The translations under genes and the position numbers were made by a program. The notes below the pieces were generated by a model. That model made no database searches and was not told where the DNA came from. It saw only the letters and a program-made list of their open reading frames with translations. A stretch of DNA of 39,072 nt from Clostridia bacterium. GTDB lineage: Bacteria; Bacillota; Clostridia; Christensenellales; Borkfalkiaceae. Each line of letters opens with the position of its first letter. The first letter of the stretch is position 1. The stretch covers positions 1 to 39,072 of the forward strand of contig JAFQGG010000013.1 of assembly GCA_017415505.1 (NCBI GenBank), written 5' to 3'. Positions 26,271 to 38,815 of the stretch are shown one piece after another.

Positions 26271-26297
26271 AAAAGCGGTGTTTTTAGCACCGCTTTT
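26271..26297 (+). terminator. Hairpin terminator before the MFS-glycosidase gene
   Basis: A 10-bp stem AAAAGCGGTG/CACCGCTTTT with a 7-base loop ends in four T residues. The stop codon of the preceding gene lies seven bases before it. The T-run is short, so partial read-through into the next gene is likely. Confidence 0.65.
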
Positions 26298-26318: not shown

Positions 26319-29300
26319 ATGCAATCAAACGGTTTTGGTAAAAAGAATTGGTGGATTTTGATTTTGTTCGGGCTTATCGGGCAAATCGCGTGGGCGGTGG
26401 AGAATATGTACTTCAACCTCTTCGTGTACGAAACGATAAGCACCGATTTGGACGCGGTTACGCTCATGGTACAGCTTTCGGGCGTGGCGGCGACGGTGAC
26501 GACGCTCGTGGCGGGCACGCTGTCGGATAAGACGGGCAACCGCCGATCGTTTATATCGATCGGGTATATCATTTGGGGTTTGACGGTCGCGCTGTTCGGG
26601 TTGATCAGTCCCGCGAATATGCAAGCGATTTTCCAAACGGATTCCGTTCAAGCGGTGTCGATCGCGGTCGCGGTGGTAATCGCGGGGGATTGCGTAATGA
26701 CGCTGTTCGGCTCGACGGCGAACGACGCGGCGTTCAACGCGTGGGTGACGGACAATACGAAAGAACGCTTCCGCGGGAAGGTGGAGGGCGTACTCTCCAT
26801 TTTACCCCTTTTGTCCATGTTGATCGTGGCGGGCGGTTTCGGGATTATCAAGGACGCGATCGGGTATCCCGCCCTCTTTATCGCGCTCGGCGCGGTAATT
26901 TCCGCGTGCGGGGTGGGCGGTTTGTTCTTGATTCAAGACAGCCCCGCGCTCCAAAAGAAAGGCTCGCTCAAAGATATCGTTTACGGGTTCAAGCCGAGCG
27001 TCGTCAAGGCGAACCCCGCGCTGTACACCGTCTTTTGTATCATGGGCGTGTACGGCGTTGCCTGTCAAATTTTCATGCCCTATCTCATTATATATATGAA
27101 GACCTATCTTGGGTTTTCCGTACTCGAATACAGCGTAGTGTTCGGGCTTGCGATTGCACTCGGGGCGGTGATCAACCTCTTCCTCGGCGTTTGGAGCGAT
27201 AAAAAGAACAAGGCAAAACTTTTATATATCGCGCTCGCCGTTATGTCGGCGGGGCTGTTGGGAATGTACTTCGCGCACGCGGAAAGCCACGCGCTCACGC
27301 TCGCCGTATTCGGCGCGTTCGGGTTCGTCATGATTACGGGCTATATCTTCGTATCCGCGCTTTGCGGGGCAATCGCGCGCGATTACACGCCCGAATCGGA
27401 CGCGGGAAAATTGCAGGGCGTACGCATGATTTTCAACGTGCTTATTCCCATGCTTCTCGGTCCGTTTATCGGTAACGCGATCAATAAACGCGCGAATATC
27501 CCGCTGTTGAACGCGGGCGCGGACGCTATGACGACGGAGTACATACCCGTTCCCGCGATCTTCCTCGCGGGTGGGATTGTCGCGCTACTCGCGCTGTTAA
27601 TCGTACCCCTGCTCGTGAAAAAGACGGCGAAAAAAACGCCGTTTAAGCGTTTGCCCACCGATTACGAAACGGGCGAAATTCCGCACGCGGAACACCCGTG
27701 CCCCCAATGCAAGCGGGAGAGCTGGTTGAACCTCAACGGCAAGTGGTCGTTCTATAAAACGGACGGCAAGACGAGAAGCTACGAGGGGGAAATCCTCGTG
27801 CCCTTCTCCCCCGAAACTTTGAATAGCGGGGTGGAAGAGGGATTCGTGTTGCACGCGGGCGAGTCGCTCGTGTACACGCGGAAATTCCGCTTGGGCGCGG
27901 AGCTGTTGCGCGGGAAAACGGTACTGCGTTTCGGCGCGGTGGATAGCGAGTGCGAGGTGTTCGTCAACGGCGAAAAGGCGGGCGGGCATACGGGCGGTTT
28001 CACGGCGTTTGCGCTCGATATCACGGCGCTCGTGCACGAGGGCGAGAACGAAGTGCGCGTGCATTGTACGGACGAGGGCACGCGCAATCACGACGCGCGC
28101 GGAAAACAAAGCGATAAGCGTGGCGGGATTTGGTACACCCCGCAAAGCGGGATTTGGCAAACGGTGTGGATAGAAAGTATGCCGAAAAATTGTATTGGCG
28201 GTTTGAAAATCACCCCGAACGCGACGGAAAACAAAGTGAAAATCCGCGCCGAGGGGGGCGCGCTGACTTTGCGCGTCTACGACGGCGAGCGGGAAATTTT
28301 GACCCAAACCTTCACGGGCGAAACGGAAATTTCTCACCCTTTCGAGTTGTGGTCGCCCGAAAATCCCAAGCTCTATCCCTTTACCTTGGAGAACGCCGAC
28401 GGGGATAAAATCGAGTCGTATTTTGCCGTGCGCTCGTTTGGCACGGGCACGGACGAGCAGGGGATAAAACGGCTTACCCTCAACGGCAAAGCATACTTTT
28501 TCAACGGCGTGCTCGATCAAGGTTATTGGTCGGACGGTATGCTCACCTATCCTTCCGACGCCTCGGCGGAAGAGGAGCTTCGCCTGCTCAAAGCCATGGG
28601 CTTTAACACCGTGCGCAAGCATATCAAGATAGAACCCATGCGTTGGTATTACCATTGCGATAGATTAGGACTCGTCGTTTGGCAGGATTTCGTAAACGGG
28701 GGCGGGGAGTATTCCTTCCTGCATATTGCCGCGCTTCCCTTCCTCGGTTTCCACCACCGCGACGACGATTATAAATACTTCGCGCGGGAAAACGAGCGGG
28801 GCAGGTATGCGTTCATGCGTGCTTTGGACGAAACGGTGGAACAGCTTTACAACTGCCCGTGTATCGGCGTTTGGGTACCGTTCAACGAGGGTTGGGGGCA
28901 ATTCGACTCGGCAAAAGTCACTGCGTATTTGCGGGAAAAGGACGATACGCGCATTATCGATTCGGTGAGCGGTTGGCACGATCAAGGCGCGGACAAAACG
29001 GAGCTTTTGAGCTTGCATACTTATTATACGCCCCTGCGCGTACCCAAGGACAGCCGACCCGTCGTGTTGAGCGAATTCGGCGGGTATTCCATGAAAGTGG
29101 ACGGGCATATCTTCGCGGAAGATAAGGAGTTCGGGTATAAGAAATTCCAAACGGAAGAGGCGCTCGTATCCGCCCTGCAAACGCTGTTTTTAGACAAGCT
29201 CAAACCGCTGATTGGCAAAGGGCTTTGCGCAAGTATTTACACGCAGGTGTCCGACGTGGAAGAGGAAATCAACGGGCTAGTGACTTACGATAGAAAGGTG

Positions 29301-29381
29301 GTGAAAGTGCCCGTGGAGAAAATGCGGGCGATCAACGACGAGATTTTCGCCGAAGCGAAAAAATACGAGAACTTGCAATAA
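26319..29381 (+). CDS. MFS transporter fused to a family 2 glycoside hydrolase
   Basis: One uninterrupted 1020-aa frame. Residues 1-432 form an MFS transporter with about 12 helices; the loop-2 motif reads GTLSDKTGNRRS and the family resembles sugar (GPH/SLC45-like) carriers. A basic linker (about 433-455) leads into a complete GH2 enzyme: sugar-binding jelly roll (about 465-620, NLNGKWSFYK onward), an Ig-like domain (about 625-705) and a TIM barrel (about 715-1000) with acid/base E857 (VPFNEGW) and nucleophile E919 (VLSEFGG). With an even helix count the enzyme would face the cytoplasm, ready to cleave the imported glycoside. ATG 26319 has a GGGGGCAGG site; a TTG at 26304 is an alternative. 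The exact substrate is unknown. Confidence 0.9.
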   Translation: MQSNGFGKKNWWILILFGLIGQIAWAVENMYFNLFVYETISTDLDAVTLMVQLSGVAATVTTLVAGTLSDKTGNRRSFISIGYIIWGLTVALFGLISPANMQAIFQTDSVQAVSIAVAVVIAGDCVMTLFGSTANDAAFNAWVTDNTKERFRGKVEGVLSILPLLSMLIVAGGFGIIKDAIGYPALFIALGAVISACGVGGLFLIQDSPALQKKGSLKDIVYGFKPSVVKANPALYTVFCIMGVYGVACQIFMPYLIIYMKTYLGFSVLEYSVVFGLAIALGAVINLFLGVWSDKKNKAKLLYIALAVMSAGLLGMYFAHAESHALTLAVFGAFGFVMITGYIFVSALCGAIARDYTPESDAGKLQGVRMIFNVLIPMLLGPFIGNAINKRANIPLLNAGADAMTTEYIPVPAIFLAGGIVALLALLIVPLLVKKTAKKTPFKRLPTDYETGEIPHAEHPCPQCKRESWLNLNGKWSFYKTDGKTRSYEGEILVPFSPETLNSGVEEGFVLHAGESLVYTRKFRLGAELLRGKTVLRFGAVDSECEVFVNGEKAGGHTGGFTAFALDITALVHEGENEVRVHCTDEGTRNHDARGKQSDKRGGIWYTPQSGIWQTVWIESMPKNCIGGLKITPNATENKVKIRAEGGALTLRVYDGEREILTQTFTGETEISHPFELWSPENPKLYPFTLENADGDKIESYFAVRSFGTGTDEQGIKRLTLNGKAYFFNGVLDQGYWSDGMLTYPSDASAEEELRLLKAMGFNTVRKHIKIEPMRWYYHCDRLGLVVWQDFVNGGGEYSFLHIAALPFLGFHHRDDDYKYFARENERGRYAFMRALDETVEQLYNCPCIGVWVPFNEGWGQFDSAKVTAYLREKDDTRIIDSVSGWHDQGADKTELLSLHTYYTPLRVPKDSRPVVLSEFGGYSMKVDGHIFAEDKEFGYKKFQTEEALVSALQTLFLDKLKPLIGKGLCASIYTQVSDVEEEINGLVTYDRKVVKVPVEKMRAINDEIFAEAKKYENLQ

Positions 29382-29396
29382 CGAGCGCAAGCAAAA

Positions 29397-29430
29397 GCAA
29401 AAGACAGCCCCTACGAGGGCTGTCTTTTGC
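29397..29430. terminator. Terminator after the MFS-glycosidase gene
   Basis: A perfect 14-bp stem (29397-29410 with 29417-29430) with a six-base loop ends in a T-rich arm. It starts 15 bases after the stop codon and can act in both directions. Confidence 0.85.
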
Positions 29431-29484
29431 TTTGTCCGCGCGCATAAAAATCCCGTTTTCCCGCAAACTGTGCTTGGAGGGGAT

Positions 29485-33531: not shown

Positions 33532-33590
33532 AAAAACTTAACCATGGGCAGGCTAAGCCTGCCAATGAAATTTTGCTCCGCAACGGAGCA
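33532..33590. repeat. Half palindrome plus two hairpins before the LRR gene
   Basis: A half copy of the palindrome (to 33546) runs into GGCAGGC-taa-GCCTGCC (33547-33563) and then TGCTCCG-caa-CGGAGCA (33574-33590). The second hairpin touches the GGAGG ribosome site of the next gene (33592-33596). Confidence 0.65.
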
Positions 33591-33600
33591 TGGAGGATTT

Positions 33601-34710
33601 ATGGCAAAAACATTATCAAAAAGCGCGCCCTTTTTACGGGTTTGTAAAAATTGCGGGGAACGCGTTTCCGACGGCGCGACCGCTTGCAAAAAGTGCAAAG
33701 CGACCGACTTTTACGAAACGGAAACCGATTATTTGCAAGCGCACTACGAAATTATCGGCGATACGCTCGTTCGTTGCGCGCACGAGGAGAAGAAAATGTG
33801 GCTTCCGTCCTTTCTTCGCGTCGTCGGTCCGCACGCGTTTGCGGAGTGTAAGAAAATCGAGGAGATCGAGTTCCCGTTCGCCTTGAAGGAAATCGGGCAA
33901 AACGCGTTCGGGGGTTGTAGCGCCCTGCAAAAAATCTCGTTGCCCGCCGATATCGAGCGGATCGGTACGGGTGCGTTCGCCTATTGCCACGCGTTGAAAA
34001 CGGTGGAATACAGGGGTTTGATAGACGGCTTTTTCGAAATCGAACAAACCGACCTTTTCCGAGGTCTTGCGTGCCCCACGCTGTACATCGACGGCGCGCC
34101 CCTCGAAGAATTGATAGTGCCCGCGTGGGTGACGGAGCTGAAAGAAAAGCAGTTTTGGGGCGCGAAGTTTTTGAAAAGGGTCGTTTTACCGCCCACCGTC
34201 AAGCGGATCGGCGCGCACGCTTTCGAGTTTTGCGAAAACCTCGAAGAGGTCGTTTTTTCGGAGGGGTTGGAACATATAGATACTTACGCGTTTCTCGGCA
34301 CGGGCGTGAAGGAAATCGTGCTCCCCGTAAGTTTGAAAACCATGAACGCTTGCGTTTTTCAATCGTGCAAGAAATTGACGAAAGCGACGGTGAAAAAGAA
34401 TTTACGGCAAATCGGCGTGAGCGCGTTCGAGAAATGCACTTCGCTTCGCGAGGTGGTGATTGCCGAGGGGGTGCAAGGGATTCAAACGAGCGCGTTTAGA
34501 GGGTGCACGGATTTGGAGAAAATTATCATTCCCAAGAGCGTGAGCTTAGTGGCAATGTGGGCGTTCAAGGACTGTTCCAAAAGCAAGCTCCGCATCTACG
34601 CCCGCGCGCTTTGGAAACCGCGGTTTTGGCGGGGCGGGAGTTGCAGTTGGAATCCCAACCGTTGCCGAGTGAAATGGAATTATAAAAAAGAAAGGGATAA
34701 AAACGGATAA
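33601..34710 (+). CDS. Zinc-ribbon and BspA-type leucine-rich repeat protein
   Basis: A 369-aa protein with an N-terminal zinc ribbon (C15, C18, C29, C32) and about nine LRR_5/BspA-like repeats (about 62-340) of the form IGxxAFxxCxxLxxIxLPxxV. No signal peptide, membrane helix or cell-wall anchor is visible, so unlike most BspA proteins it is probably cytoplasmic. The end is basic with several Trp and Arg (WKPRFWRGGSCSWNPNR). ATG 33601 has a GGAGG site. The function is unknown; protein binding through the repeats is a fair inference. It sits alone between the palindrome cluster and ppdK. Confidence 0.85.
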   Translation: MAKTLSKSAPFLRVCKNCGERVSDGATACKKCKATDFYETETDYLQAHYEIIGDTLVRCAHEEKKMWLPSFLRVVGPHAFAECKKIEEIEFPFALKEIGQNAFGGCSALQKISLPADIERIGTGAFAYCHALKTVEYRGLIDGFFEIEQTDLFRGLACPTLYIDGAPLEELIVPAWVTELKEKQFWGAKFLKRVVLPPTVKRIGAHAFEFCENLEEVVFSEGLEHIDTYAFLGTGVKEIVLPVSLKTMNACVFQSCKKLTKATVKKNLRQIGVSAFEKCTSLREVVIAEGVQGIQTSAFRGCTDLEKIIIPKSVSLVAMWAFKDCSKSKLRIYARALWKPRFWRGGSCSWNPNRCRVKWNYKKERDKNG

Positions 34711-34806: not shown

Positions 34807-34915
34807 AATATATGGTAAAAAACAAGACCTCGGTTTTCGCGCCCCGAAAAAAGCGGGCGGGATTGTTTTTTGCGGTTAAAAAAGAAAAAAATCATTTTTG
34901 GAGGAAATAAACATT

Positions 34916-37561
34916 ATGGCAAAAAAATATTGCTATCTCTTTACGGAAGGCAATGCGAAAATGCGCGAGATCCTCGGCGGTAAAGGTGCGAACCTTGCGG
35001 AAATGACCAATATCGGTCTTCCCGTACCTCAAGGCTTCACCATCTCTACGGAGGCTTGTACGCAGTACTACGAAGACGGCAGACAAATCAACCCCGACAT
35101 TCAAGCCGAAATTATGGAATACATCGAAAAGATGGAAAACATTTGCGGTATGAAGTTCGGCGACAAGGAAAACCCCTTGCTCGTATCCGTGCGTTCGGGT
35201 GCGCGCGCTTCCATGCCCGGCATGATGGACACCATTCTCAACCTCGGTTTGAACGAAGAAGTGGTGAACACGCTCGCCGCGAAATCGGGTAATCCCCGTT
35301 GGGCTTGGGACTGCTATCGCCGTTTCATTCAAATGTTCTCGGACGTCGTTATGGAAGTGGGCAAGAAGTATTTCGAAAAGCTCATTGACGAAATGAAAGA
35401 AAAGAAAGGCGTTACGCAAGACGTAGAATTGGACGCGGACGATTTGAAAGCGCTCGCTAACCAATTCAAGGCGGAATACAAAAAGCAACTTGGCAAAGAA
35501 TTCCCCAACGATCCCAAAGAACAGCTCTTCGAAGCGGTAAAAGCGGTATTCCGTTCTTGGGACAACCCCCGTGCGAACATCTACCGTATGGACCACGACA
35601 TCCCTTACAGCTGGGGTACTGCCGTAAACGTACAAATGATGGCGTTCGGTAACATGGGCGAAACTTCCGGTACAGGCGTTGCGTTCACGCGTGACCCTGC
35701 AACGGGTGAAAAAGGTCTTATGGGTGAGTTCCTCACCAACGCGCAAGGCGAAGACGTAGTTGCCGGCGTTCGTACGCCGATGCCTATCGCGCAAATGAAA
35801 GAAGTGTTCCCCGAAGTGTACGAACAATTCTTGAACGTTTGCAATATCCTTGAAAATCACTACCGTGATATGCAAGATATGGAGTTCACGATCCAAGACC
35901 GTAAACTTTATATGCTTCAAACGAGAAACGGTAAGAGAACGGCTGCGGCGGCTATCAAGATCGCTTGCGACTTGATCGACGAAGGCATGATCACCGAACA
36001 GGAAGCGGTTATGCAAATCGACGCGAAGAGCCTCGACATGCTCTTGCACCCTCAATTCGACGCAAAAGCGCTTAAAGACGCGGATAAGAACAACGTAGTG
36101 GGCAAAGGTCTTGCGGCTTCCCCCGGTGCGGCGGCTGGTAAGATCGTGTTCACGGCGGAAGACGCGGTTATCGAAGGCAAGAAGGGCGAGAACGTAATTC
36201 TCGTTCGTTTGGAAACTTCCCCCGAAGATATCGAGGGTATGAAGTACGCGAAGGGTATCCTCACCGTTCGTGGCGGTATGACCTCTCACGCGGCGGTTGT
36301 TGCGCGCGGTATGGGTACTTGCTGCGTATCCGGCTGTGGCGAAATCAAAATGCACGAAGAAGAGAAATACTTCGAACTCGCAGGCAAGATCTTCCGCGAA
36401 GGCGACGCTCTTTCCCTCGACGGTTCGACGGGTAACATTTACGACACCCTTATCAAGACCGTTCCCGCAGACCCCAACTCCGGTTACTTTGGACGCATCA
36501 TGGAACTTGCGGACAAGTACAAGGCGCTCGGTATTAGAACGAACGCGGATACGCCCGCGGACGCGAAACAAGCGGTTGCGTTCGGCGCGCAAGGTATCGG
36601 TCTTTGCCGTACGGAACACATGTTCTTCGATCCTTCGAGAATCGGCGCGTTCCGCGAAATGATTTGCTCGGATACGGTGGAAGAAAGAGAAGCGGCGCTC
36701 GCGAAGATCGAACCCATGCAACAAGCGGACTTCGAAGGCTTGTTCGAAGCGCTCGGCGGTTATCCCGTAACCATTCGTTTCCTCGATCCTCCCCTTCACG
36801 AATTCGTGCCCACGAGCGAAGAGGATATCGCGGCGCTTGCAAAAGCACAAAACAAGACGGTTGCGCAAATCAAAGAGATTATCGCGGGCTTGCACGAATT
36901 TAACCCCATGATGGGTCACCGTGGTTGCCGTCTTACCGTAACCTATCCCGAAATTGCAGTCATGCAAACGAAGGCGGTTATCAAAGCGGCGATTGCAGTC
37001 GTGAAGAAGCACCCCGATTGGAAGCTCGTTCCCGAAATCATGATTCCTTTGACGGGCGAAACGAAAGAGTTGAAGTTCGTAAAAGATATCGTCGTGAAGA
37101 CGGCAAACGAAGTTATCGCGGCTTCGGGCGTGGAATTGAAGTACGAAGTAGGTACGATGATCGAAATTCCCAGAGCTTGCTTGACGGCGGAAGAGATTGC
37201 ACAAGAAGCGGAATTCTTCTGCTTCGGTACGAACGACTTGACGCAAATGACGTTCGGCTTCTCGCGTGACGACGCAGGTAAGTTCTTGCCCGCATACTAC
37301 GCGAATAAGATTTACGAATCCGATCCGTTCGCAAGATTGGATACGACGGGCGTTGGTAAGCTCATGAAGATGGCGGTAGAAGGCGGTTACAAGGTACGCC
37401 CGAATATGCACTGCGGTATCTGCGGTGAACACGGCGGTGATCCTTCGTCCATCGAATTCTGCCACGAAATCGGACTTTCCTACGTTTCGTGCTCGCCGTA
37501 CCGCGTGCCCATCGCACGCCTTTCCGCGGCGCAAGCGAATATCAAAAATCCTCGCAAATAA
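34916..37561 (+). CDS. ppdK: Pyruvate, phosphate dikinase
   Basis: Interconverts pyruvate + ATP + phosphate and phosphoenolpyruvate + AMP + PPi, central to PPi-linked glycolysis or gluconeogenesis in many anaerobes. The 881-aa protein has the N-terminal ATP-grasp domain, the swivelling phosphohistidine domain with catalytic H458 in GGMTSHAAVVARG, and the C-terminal PEP-binding barrel with GTNDLTQMTFGFSRDD and C836 in CGICGEHGGDP. Length is standard. Codon choice differs from neighbours (many GGT, CGT and GCT codons), as expected for a highly expressed gene. ATG 34916 has GGAGGAAA about ten bases upstream. Its last codons and terminator are duplicated downstream of fic. Confidence 0.98.
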   Translation: MAKKYCYLFTEGNAKMREILGGKGANLAEMTNIGLPVPQGFTISTEACTQYYEDGRQINPDIQAEIMEYIEKMENICGMKFGDKENPLLVSVRSGARASMPGMMDTILNLGLNEEVVNTLAAKSGNPRWAWDCYRRFIQMFSDVVMEVGKKYFEKLIDEMKEKKGVTQDVELDADDLKALANQFKAEYKKQLGKEFPNDPKEQLFEAVKAVFRSWDNPRANIYRMDHDIPYSWGTAVNVQMMAFGNMGETSGTGVAFTRDPATGEKGLMGEFLTNAQGEDVVAGVRTPMPIAQMKEVFPEVYEQFLNVCNILENHYRDMQDMEFTIQDRKLYMLQTRNGKRTAAAAIKIACDLIDEGMITEQEAVMQIDAKSLDMLLHPQFDAKALKDADKNNVVGKGLAASPGAAAGKIVFTAEDAVIEGKKGENVILVRLETSPEDIEGMKYAKGILTVRGGMTSHAAVVARGMGTCCVSGCGEIKMHEEEKYFELAGKIFREGDALSLDGSTGNIYDTLIKTVPADPNSGYFGRIMELADKYKALGIRTNADTPADAKQAVAFGAQGIGLCRTEHMFFDPSRIGAFREMICSDTVEEREAALAKIEPMQQADFEGLFEALGGYPVTIRFLDPPLHEFVPTSEEDIAALAKAQNKTVAQIKEIIAGLHEFNPMMGHRGCRLTVTYPEIAVMQTKAVIKAAIAVVKKHPDWKLVPEIMIPLTGETKELKFVKDIVVKTANEVIAASGVELKYEVGTMIEIPRACLTAEEIAQEAEFFCFGTNDLTQMTFGFSRDDAGKFLPAYYANKIYESDPFARLDTTGVGKLMKMAVEGGYKVRPNMHCGICGEHGGDPSSIEFCHEIGLSYVSCSPYRVPIARLSAAQANIKNPRK

Positions 37562-37721: not shown

Positions 37722-37753
37722 TTAGGAGAAAAGGAGCGTAAGAGGTGCGTTTT

Positions 37754-38815
37754 ATGAGAGATTTTAATTATTCTTTATTAAAAGACCTAAAATGGGATTG
37801 CGAGATAGTAAGTTATTTGACGGCGATTCACGAGGCAAAGGGCAAACAAGAGCTTTACTTAAAGCAACAACCCGAAAAACTTAATAAACTTGTGGAAATA
37901 GCAAAAGTTCAAAGTACGGAATCGTCCAACGATATTGAAGGTATAAGAACGACGAATACGAGATTAAAACAACTTTTAACGGATAAGACTACGCCTAAAA
38001 ACCGTGACGAAGAAGAAATCGCAGGGTATAGGGACGTGCTTAACGTTATTCACGAAAGTTTTGAGTATATCCCTATGACGGTAAACTATATTTTGCAACT
38101 TCATAAGATTTTGTATAGTCATTCGGCAAAGAGTATCGGCGGTAAGTTCAAAGGCGTTCAAAACTATATTACTTTGAGCGAAAACGGCAAGGAAAGTATT
38201 TTATTTACGCCACCTGCGCCTTATGAAACGCCCGAAGCAATAGAGAAGATTTGCAACGAGTTTAATATAGCAATTTCAAAGTGCGAAGTAGACCCGCTTA
38301 TCTTGATACCGATTTTTATTCACGATTTCTTGTGCATACACCCGTTTTCGGACGGTAACGGTAGAATGAGCAGACTTCTCACCACGCTACTCTTATATAG
38401 AAACGGCTATATGGTGGGCAAATATATTTCTTTGGAATCTAAAATCGCTAAGAATAAAAACGCATATTACGATGCGTTAGAAAAGGCGCAAGCAGGTTGG
38501 GACGAAGGAAGAGAAGACCTCGTTCCGTTTATCAAGTATTTGCTCGGCACTATGATCTCGGCGTATAGAGATTTTGAAGATAGAATGGAGTTAGTCAGCG
38601 AAAGCGATTCGGCGTTTGATATGGTTAAAAAAGCCGTAGCGAACAAAATTGGTAAGTTTACCAAAATGGATATCGTAGCAATGTGTCCGTCGCTTAGCAA
38701 TAGTTCGGTAGAAAGTTCACTCAAAAAACTTGCCAAAGAAGGCTTTATCGAAAAGAAAGGCGCAAGCCGTGCCACGTATTATATAAAAATAGCAAACGGA
38801 ACGAAAACTTCTTGA
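37754..38815 (+). CDS. Fic-family protein (AMP transferase-type) with winged-helix tail
   Basis: A 353-aa Fic protein. The catalytic motif HPFSDGNGRMSR is complete (H196), and an N-terminal inhibitory-helix motif SNDIEG (S58, E62, G63) marks a class II, self-inhibited Fic. The C-terminal part (about 285-345) looks like a winged helix-turn-helix (KFTKMDIVAMCPSLSNSSVE, then LKKLAKEGFIEKKG), so it may bind its own promoter repeats. Such proteins usually transfer AMP to target proteins; the target is unknown. Base composition and codon use (many AGA, TTA and ATA codons) are clearly more AT-rich than the flanking genes. A GTG at 37745 with GGAG is an alternative start. Confidence 0.93.
   Translation: MRDFNYSLLKDLKWDCEIVSYLTAIHEAKGKQELYLKQQPEKLNKLVEIAKVQSTESSNDIEGIRTTNTRLKQLLTDKTTPKNRDEEEIAGYRDVLNVIHESFEYIPMTVNYILQLHKILYSHSAKSIGGKFKGVQNYITLSENGKESILFTPPAPYETPEAIEKICNEFNIAISKCEVDPLILIPIFIHDFLCIHPFSDGNGRMSRLLTTLLLYRNGYMVGKYISLESKIAKNKNAYYDALEKAQAGWDEGREDLVPFIKYLLGTMISAYRDFEDRMELVSESDSAFDMVKKAVANKIGKFTKMDIVAMCPSLSNSSVESSLKKLAKEGFIEKKGASRATYYIKIANGTKTS

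What the first reader, a model, noticed from the sequence alone, without database searches (positions are those of the whole stretch)
26319..29381. MFS transporter and GH2 glycosidase joined in one polypeptide
The sequence shows a single open frame from a 12-helix MFS carrier through a basic linker into a complete GH2 enzyme with both catalytic glutamates. In established systems the carrier and the intracellular glycosidase are separate proteins encoded side by side. A fusion would place hydrolysis at the exit of the transporter and couple uptake to cleavage. I know of no described protein with this order, but I cannot search.
Basis: partly seen in the sequence, partly recalled or inferred. 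Interest (0 to 1): 0.8.

Follow-up and report, generated by a model that had tools for sequence, protein, structure and literature searches.

The report
Sugar importer fused to a furanosidase
Some uncultured gut bacteria appear to make one protein that joins a sugar-type membrane transporter to a sugar-cutting enzyme, probably so that a rare sugar linkage (galactofuranose) is cut as it enters the cell.

Summary
Window 26319-29381 (+) is one open frame of 1020 codons: a 12-helix MFS carrier, a short basic linker and a full GH2 enzyme with both catalytic glutamates. It is not an artefact: the same order in one frame was found in 22 distinct species genomes, 7 on the window's side (Clostridia by record titles) and 15 in one family that includes Bacilli records. 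Relatives often carry two adjacent genes; 40 of 50 such pairs overlap and 48 of 50 have an SD-like motif before the GH2 start (13.9% of random codons do). None of the 22 fusions has such a motif before an in-frame ATG or GTG at the joint. Trees reject one clade for the fusions, so they arose, or were undone, more than once. The substrate guess needs changing: the enzyme falls with GH2 group III, the furanosidases, though the nearest solved entry is titled a beta-galactosidase. Host galactokinase and mostly missing arabinose isomerase weakly favour galactofuranosides. Coupling is inferred, not shown. MFS-enzyme fusions are known (LplT-Aas); this pair I did not find in ten paper searches.

The parts
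26319..29381 (+). single open frame of 1020 codons: MFS carrier - linker - GH2 furanosidase-type enzyme
26319..27626 (+). MFS carrier part (residues 1-436, about 12 predicted helices)
   Evidence: Pfam MFS_1 23-381; hydropathy; helices to 436 in the model
27627..27698 (+). linker, basic, residues 437-460; contains AAG (27645-27647) where separate relatives have the GH2 ATG start (my reading of the junctions)
   Evidence: junction comparison
27699..29378 (+). GH2 part (residues 461-1020), group III type
   Evidence: Pfam; 7sf2, 9j6n, 9j6m, 7xyr by sequence and fold
28887..28889 (+). codon of acid/base Glu857 (NE motif)
   Evidence: 60 of 60 aligned rows; 22 of 22 fusions
29073..29075 (+). codon of nucleophile Glu919
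   Evidence: 59 of 59 aligned rows with letters; 21 of 21 fusions with letters
29241..29243 (+). codon of Thr975, in the YTQ loop that fits the Thr-for-Trp mark of GH2 group III
   Evidence: 58 of 58 rows with letters; mark described in PMC12243196 (passages)
26271..26297 (+). hairpin with A/U-rich stem upstream of the gene, terminator-like (may serve the upstream gene)
   Evidence: listed by the scan on the minus strand only, in a region with 11 hits against 6.0 in shuffles; fold -16 kcal/mol, z -4.7
29390..29436 (+). strong hairpin with U-rich 3' arm downstream, terminator-like
   Evidence: fold -29.6 kcal/mol, z -7.8; not listed by the pattern scan

Best explanation
A real fusion, read as one chain, of a sugar-type MFS importer with a cytoplasmic GH2 group III exo-furanosidase. 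The carrier brings a small furanoside (most likely a beta-D-galactofuranoside, less likely an alpha-L-arabinofuranoside) across the membrane; the enzyme tethered to its cytoplasmic C-terminus cuts off the terminal furanose by the retaining two-glutamate mechanism, and the freed galactose enters the galactokinase route. The fusion came from a widespread pair of adjacent, mostly overlapping genes, more than once unless fissions explain the scatter. Shown: the open frame, domains, catalytic residues, conservation, absence of a credible separate start, the gene-pair background. Inferred: single-chain product, import direction, substrate, cytoplasmic side of the enzyme, and that tethering helps (by fixed 1:1 dose, anchoring, or local capture).
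For: Domains over cut-offs. 22 species with the fusion in one frame, in two classes, 36-37% identical between the window and L109, L114, L117. The ATG of separate relatives reads AAG (window), ATA (L003), GCT (L016) by my alignment of the junctions. 48 of 50 separate pairs have an SD-like motif of 4 or more bases before the GH2 start, 35 of 50 one of 5 or more; random in-frame codons of the same genes have these in 278 and 29 of 2000; none of the 22 fusions has one before an in-frame ATG or GTG at the joint. Catalytic Glu kept in 22 of 22 and 21 of 21 fusions with letters. Closest solved structures 7sf2 (34-35% identity, TM 0.89 by target) and beta-D-galactofuranosidase 9j6n/9j6m (32-34%, TM 0.85-0.86). 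Galactokinase matches in 12 of 13 genomes searched, 8 over the cut-off; L-arabinose isomerase in 1 of 13. In L085 a ROK-family gene overlaps the end of the fusion.
Against: No expression, uptake or activity data. The nearest solved entry, 7sf2, is titled a beta-galactosidase and 7xyr a beta-glucuronidase by their depositors. The carrier has no meaningful match among solved structures and only generic MFS profile hits, so direction and substrate rest on the enzyme. Galactokinase is common: it also rings in 12 of 14 control genomes (8 over the cut-off), and 4 of the 10 fused hosts searched have hits only below the cut-off; arabinose isomerase rings in 5 of 14 controls and the genomes are incomplete, so both are weak evidence. 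L145 has a TTG with AGGAG 27 bases into the GH2 match, and L109 and L114 have AGGA before an ATT or ATA at the joint, so a weak internal start is not excluded there. Neighbours differ between the fused loci looked at, so no operon support. pTM 0.67 leaves the relative placing of the domains open.
Confidence: 0.6

Rival explanations
1. The fusion is real but brings no coupling: a neutral outcome of overlapping genes. Small indels join them, and carrier and enzyme work as they did apart.
For: 40 of 50 separate pairs overlap and 47 of 50 lie in another frame, so small indels can join them; linkers differ in length and sequence; separate pairs lie among the fused ones in trees; G013 (L004) has the same frame with a TAA and a new ATG between.
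Against: In L114's family the fused form is found in at least 15 of 196 genomes searched, in copies down to 49% identity, which suggests it is at least not harmful and perhaps kept by selection.
Confidence: 0.3
2. Same protein, but the substrate is an alpha-L-arabinofuranoside from plant arabinan or arabinoxylan.
For: GH2 group III also contains alpha-L-arabinofuranosidases (PMC12243196, passages); many relatives come from the gut of plant-eating animals (record titles).
Against: L-arabinose isomerase in 1 of 13 genomes searched, the window's not among them (incomplete genomes); the nearest solved kin with a named furanosidase activity is a beta-D-galactofuranosidase.
Confidence: 0.25
3. Sequencing or assembly error: two normal genes joined on paper.
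For: The closest relatives have two genes, mostly in different frames, so a single indel error could join them.
Against: 21 other species genomes have the fusion, and the fused genes lack an ATG or GTG with SD-like motif at the joint, which an indel error would leave in place.
Confidence: 0.02
4. The carrier exports and the enzyme trims or recycles the cell's own galactofuranose glycans.
For: A bacterial sugar transferase gene and a polysaccharide flippase-type gene flank the gene in the window.
Against: Neighbours checked at six other fused loci (L066, L067, L070, L085, L109, L114) were different or had no Pfam match; the first 12 residues of the 50 separate GH2 relatives show no signal peptide-like stretch, so the enzyme is taken as cytoplasmic.
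Confidence: 0.06

Closest known systems
LplT-Aas lysophospholipid system (MFS carrier plus acyltransferase; fused in one ORF in some bacteria)
   Same: MFS carrier and the enzyme that acts on its cargo, adjacent genes in many species and apparently one ORF in others (PMC11416262, passages)
   Different: Lipid cargo and acyltransferase; ours is a carbohydrate-type carrier with a glycoside hydrolase
GH2 group III furanosidases (subfamilies GH2_18, GH2_19), e.g. beta-D-galactofuranosidase ORF1110 of Streptomyces sp. JHA19 (PDB 9j6m/9j6n); by sequence also 7sf2 of Bacteroides cellulosilyticus, titled beta-galactosidase
   Same: GH2 fold, NE and nucleophile Glu, YTQ loop with Thr; 32-35% identity, TM 0.85-0.89 by target
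   Different: The solved chains of 586-612 residues hold the enzyme alone; here it is the C-terminal half of a membrane protein
Adjacent MFS carrier and GH2 gene pairs in the same bacteria (e.g. L005, L008, L015)
   Same: Same two domains, same order and strand, 68-73% identity to the window for these three
   Different: Two genes, GH2 with its own ATG and SD, usually overlapping the MFS stop
LacS-type GPH carriers with a C-terminal PTS IIA domain (recalled, no call)
   Same: Sugar carrier with a cytoplasmic C-terminal domain
   Different: The extra domain is regulatory, not a hydrolase

Membership tests
Major facilitator superfamily | MFS profile over its curated cut-off and 12 helices | tested here: met
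   MFS_1 116.5 bits, cut-off 33.4; about 12 helices
GPH family (MFS_2-type glycoside carriers) | MFS_2 as the best-fitting profile over most of the carrier | tested here: inconclusive
   MFS_2 30.1 bits (cut-off 27), best stretch residues 6-183; MFS_1 fits far better
Glycoside hydrolase family 2 | sugar-binding, middle and TIM-barrel domains with acid/base and nucleophile Glu | tested here: met
GH2 group III (GH2_18/GH2_19) | nearest to group III structures; Thr in place of the -1 site Trp in loop 8 | tested here: met
   7sf2, 9j6n, 9j6m, 7xyr are the only sequences at E 1e-30 and the top entries by fold; 9J6M and 7XYR are placed in GH2_18 and GH2_19 by PMC12243196, which does not name 7SF2. 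Thr975 in the matching loop in 58 of 58 rows; that it is the published position is my reading, no residue numbers were seen
GH2_18 or GH2_19 singly | score against the subfamily profile | not testable with these tools
   CAZy subfamily profiles are not among the libraries
beta-D-galactofuranosidase | hydrolysis of a beta-D-galactofuranoside | not testable with these tools
   needs an enzyme assay
beta-glucuronidase or LacZ beta-galactosidase | NCBIfam equivalog cut-off | tested here: not met
   PRK10150 70.9 bits against cut-off 544; Bga2A 76.7 against 999
MFS-enzyme fusion (LplT-Aas kind) | carrier and cargo-acting enzyme in one ORF, with separate-gene relatives | tested here: inconclusive
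   one ORF and separate-gene relatives: met; that the enzyme acts on the carrier's cargo is inferred, not tested

The most novel reading that the evidence does not exclude
A natural transport metabolon for galactofuranosides: the carrier hands its cargo straight to the tethered exo-furanosidase, so hydrolysis pulls uptake, and repeated fusion shows that selection favours this coupling.
Probability: 0.25. Interest if true: 0.75.

Novelty: new variant of a known kind. Interest (0 to 1): 0.55.

Why it matters
It is a natural, recurrent case of a sugar-type carrier and a glycosidase in one chain, with dozens of matched unfused relatives as controls. That makes the question whether tethering an enzyme to a transporter helps uptake directly testable. 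It also points to a candidate uptake route for galactofuranosides in gut Clostridia and Bacilli, and warns that analyses which drop GH proteins with membrane helices may miss such proteins.

Tried and rejected
Sequencing-error reading: rejected by the other fused genomes and the missing start sites. Independent start of GH2 inside the fused gene: searched at the joint of all 22 fusions (ten, twelve); no ATG or GTG with an SD-like motif. L145 has a TTG with AGGAG 27 bases into the GH2 match, and L109 and L114 have AGGA before ATT and ATA; judged unlikely, not excluded.

One origin of all fusions: rejected by AU tests for window+L003+L016+L042+L085 (p 4e-50), for the 15 Bacilli-side fusions as one clade (p 9e-46) and for the seven Clostridia-side fusions as one clade (p 5e-75). 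But window+L003+L016+L042 as one clade was not rejected (p 0.27), nor window+L003 (p 0.51), and window+L016 were sisters at support 85 in that tree, while the thinner tree pairs the window with the separate L005 (96). So these four may share one origin. A test of window+L042 did not finish and was not repeated. Trees were 'quick' IQ-TREE runs; the 60 rows hold 24's 60 rows (all ten fused, 14 of 50 separate, chosen by hand) plus 36 others. Changes may be gains or fissions.

Further fusions across the phylum: none in 398 genomes at E 1e-60 with at most two candidates scored per genome. Operon context for substrate: no constant neighbours. The long open frames in L146 and L171 (821 and 917 codons) begin with sequence unlike a carrier and I did not follow them beyond. 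Single-sequence fold of the carrier gave pLDDT 41.5 and was not used. Carrier against solved structures by sequence: one hit at E 0.93. Paper searches: four returned nothing, and no listed title or abstract start told of an MFS-glycosidase fusion; PMC9655821 was looked at in passages only and not used.

Full report
What is there. The + strand frame 26319-29381 encodes 1020 residues. Pfam finds MFS_1 at 23-381 and three GH2 domains within 506-905, all over cut-off. NCBIfam glucuronidase and LacZ-type equivalogs score far under their cut-offs. Hydropathy peaks, merged by me to about 12 helices, end at residue 432 and the GH2 half stays under the threshold. The AlphaFold2 model from 75 window and locus sequences has mean pLDDT 88.4 and pTM 0.67, so each half is well modelled but their relative placing is not. 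The acid/base Glu857 (60 of 60 rows) and nucleophile Glu919 (59 of 59 with letters) are invariant among 60 distinct carrier/GH2 pairs, and in the 22 fusions (22 of 22 and 21 of 21 with letters).

Is the joint real. Of 61 relatives, 45 matched at E 1e-10 and three have the two halves in one frame: G000 (window), G025 (L003) and G024 (L016). G013 (L004) has the same frame but a TAA and a new ATG between. A family search of 201 genomes (77 with a match at 1e-50) added G179. One search used two patterns, both in the carrier half, and kept the best 80 of 128 relatives in named genomes: 7 of the 80 are fused, three of them the G024, G025 and G179 genes again and four new (L085 from a sheep-colon MAG; L109, L114, L117 with Bacilli or Mollicutes titles). 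That makes at least 22 distinct species, the number of fused rows. A phylum sample of 398 genomes had matches in 14 at E 1e-60 and no fusion besides the window's.

How it arose. For one search, 60 distinct pairs were kept from the loci then in hand, after dropping 30 repeats, L001 (the window again), four with a short half (L025, L054, L077, L111; in the G035 gene GH2 is broken into two frames) and two whose halves lie about 1 kb apart (L056, L060): 10 fused and 50 separate. Of the 50, 40 overlap the MFS stop, 47 lie in another frame, 48 have an SD-like motif of four or more bases 4-16 bases before the start, and 35 one of five or more. Random in-frame codons of the same GH2 genes have these in 278 and 29 of 2000. 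In the fused genes nearest the window the codon in the ATG's place is, by my alignment, AAG (window), ATA (L003) or GCT (L016). None of the 22 fusions has an SD-like motif before an in-frame ATG or GTG at the joint; the exceptions with other codons are a TTG in L145, an ATT in L109 and an ATA in L114. A bare indel error would have left both start codon and motif.

Trees. With 60 rows (10 fused) the state changes at least seven times, four forced by starred branches. With 53 nearer rows (5 fused) it changes four times, three forced. With 60 rows reaching further (22 fused, 38 separate; separate rows near the window thinned by hand) it changes nine times, eight forced. AU tests reject one clade for window+L003+L016+L042+L085, for the 15 Bacilli-side fusions, and for the seven Clostridia-side fusions, but not for window+L003+L016+L042. 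Changes can be gains or fissions; the trees do not say which.

What the enzyme is. The four solved relatives at E 1e-30 are 7sf2, 9j6n, 9j6m and 7xyr, and the same lead by fold: 32-35% identity and TM 0.85-0.89 by target for 7sf2 and 9j6m/9j6n, 26% and 0.81 for 7xyr. The depositors title 7sf2 a beta-galactosidase and 7xyr a beta-glucuronidase. The 2025 GH2 subfamily paper (PMC12243196; passages read) puts 9J6M in GH2_18 and 7XYR, called uncharacterised, in GH2_19, together group III, whose activities are beta-D-galactofuranosidase and alpha-L-arabinofuranosidase, and names a Thr in place of the -1 subsite Trp as its mark; it does not name 7SF2. Thr975 sits in the matching loop in 58 of 58 rows with letters. 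That paper filtered out proteins with membrane helices in its analysis of secretion signals, so a fusion like this one would not show there.

Which sugar. Galactokinase (TIGR00131) matches occur in 12 of 13 genomes searched (8 over the cut-off, the window's included), L-arabinose isomerase (PF02610) in 1 of 13 (G179). Ten of the 13 are fused hosts, three (G030, G026, G019) have separate genes. The controls ring in 12 of 14 (8 over the cut-off) and 5 of 14, so galactokinase is common and this is weak evidence; the genomes are incomplete too. The balance favours galactofuranosides. In L085 a ROK-family gene overlaps the fusion's end. Elsewhere the neighbours looked at are unrelated: Lon, a GTPase, a sugar transferase and a flippase-type gene in the window; a class I tRNA synthetase in L067 and a YjeF-type gene in L109.

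How it would work. A 12-helix MFS carrier is expected to have both ends in the cytoplasm (general knowledge), and the first 12 residues of the separate GH2 relatives show no signal peptide-like stretch, so the fused enzyme should face the cytoplasm. Import followed by cleavage of the terminal furanose is the simplest reading. Whether the fusion channels substrate, fixes a 1:1 dose, or is neutral is open.

Against what is known. The nearest kind is LplT-Aas: adjacent MFS and acyltransferase genes, apparently fused to one ORF in some bacteria whose proteins were said to be uncharacterised (PMC11416262, passages). The same passages report that fusing Aas to LplT's C-terminus disrupted LplT expression in E. 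coli, a warning that such fusions are not free. An MFS carrier fused to a glycoside hydrolase was not found in ten searches of the held open-access library, which lacks most subscription papers and preprints; domain-architecture pages of protein databases could not be searched. I therefore call it a new variant of a known kind.

Noticed in passing
L004 (G013), carrier/GH2 junction: Same reading frame as the fusions but with a TAA and a new ATG with SD-like motif between the halves: close to a fusion, or a recent fission.
   Followed up: partly
L085:9044-10060: A ROK-family gene overlaps the end of the fused gene, a possible kinase for the released sugar.
   Followed up: partly
window 34892-37561: Two frames of 880 and 887 codons lie on opposite strands over the same bases; the minus-strand one has no Pfam match, the other was not searched.
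   Followed up: no
window 33544-34710 and 37745-38815: A BspA-type leucine-rich repeat protein and a Fic/DOC-family protein downstream of the fusion.
   Followed up: no
L185 (G869): A GH2 match inside an open frame of 2408 codons, a different large architecture.
   Followed up: no
G025:C25:8898-10019: The galactokinase match lies in an open frame of 675 codons, against 375-405 at the other over-cut-off matches; perhaps another fusion or just an open upstream stretch.
   Followed up: no
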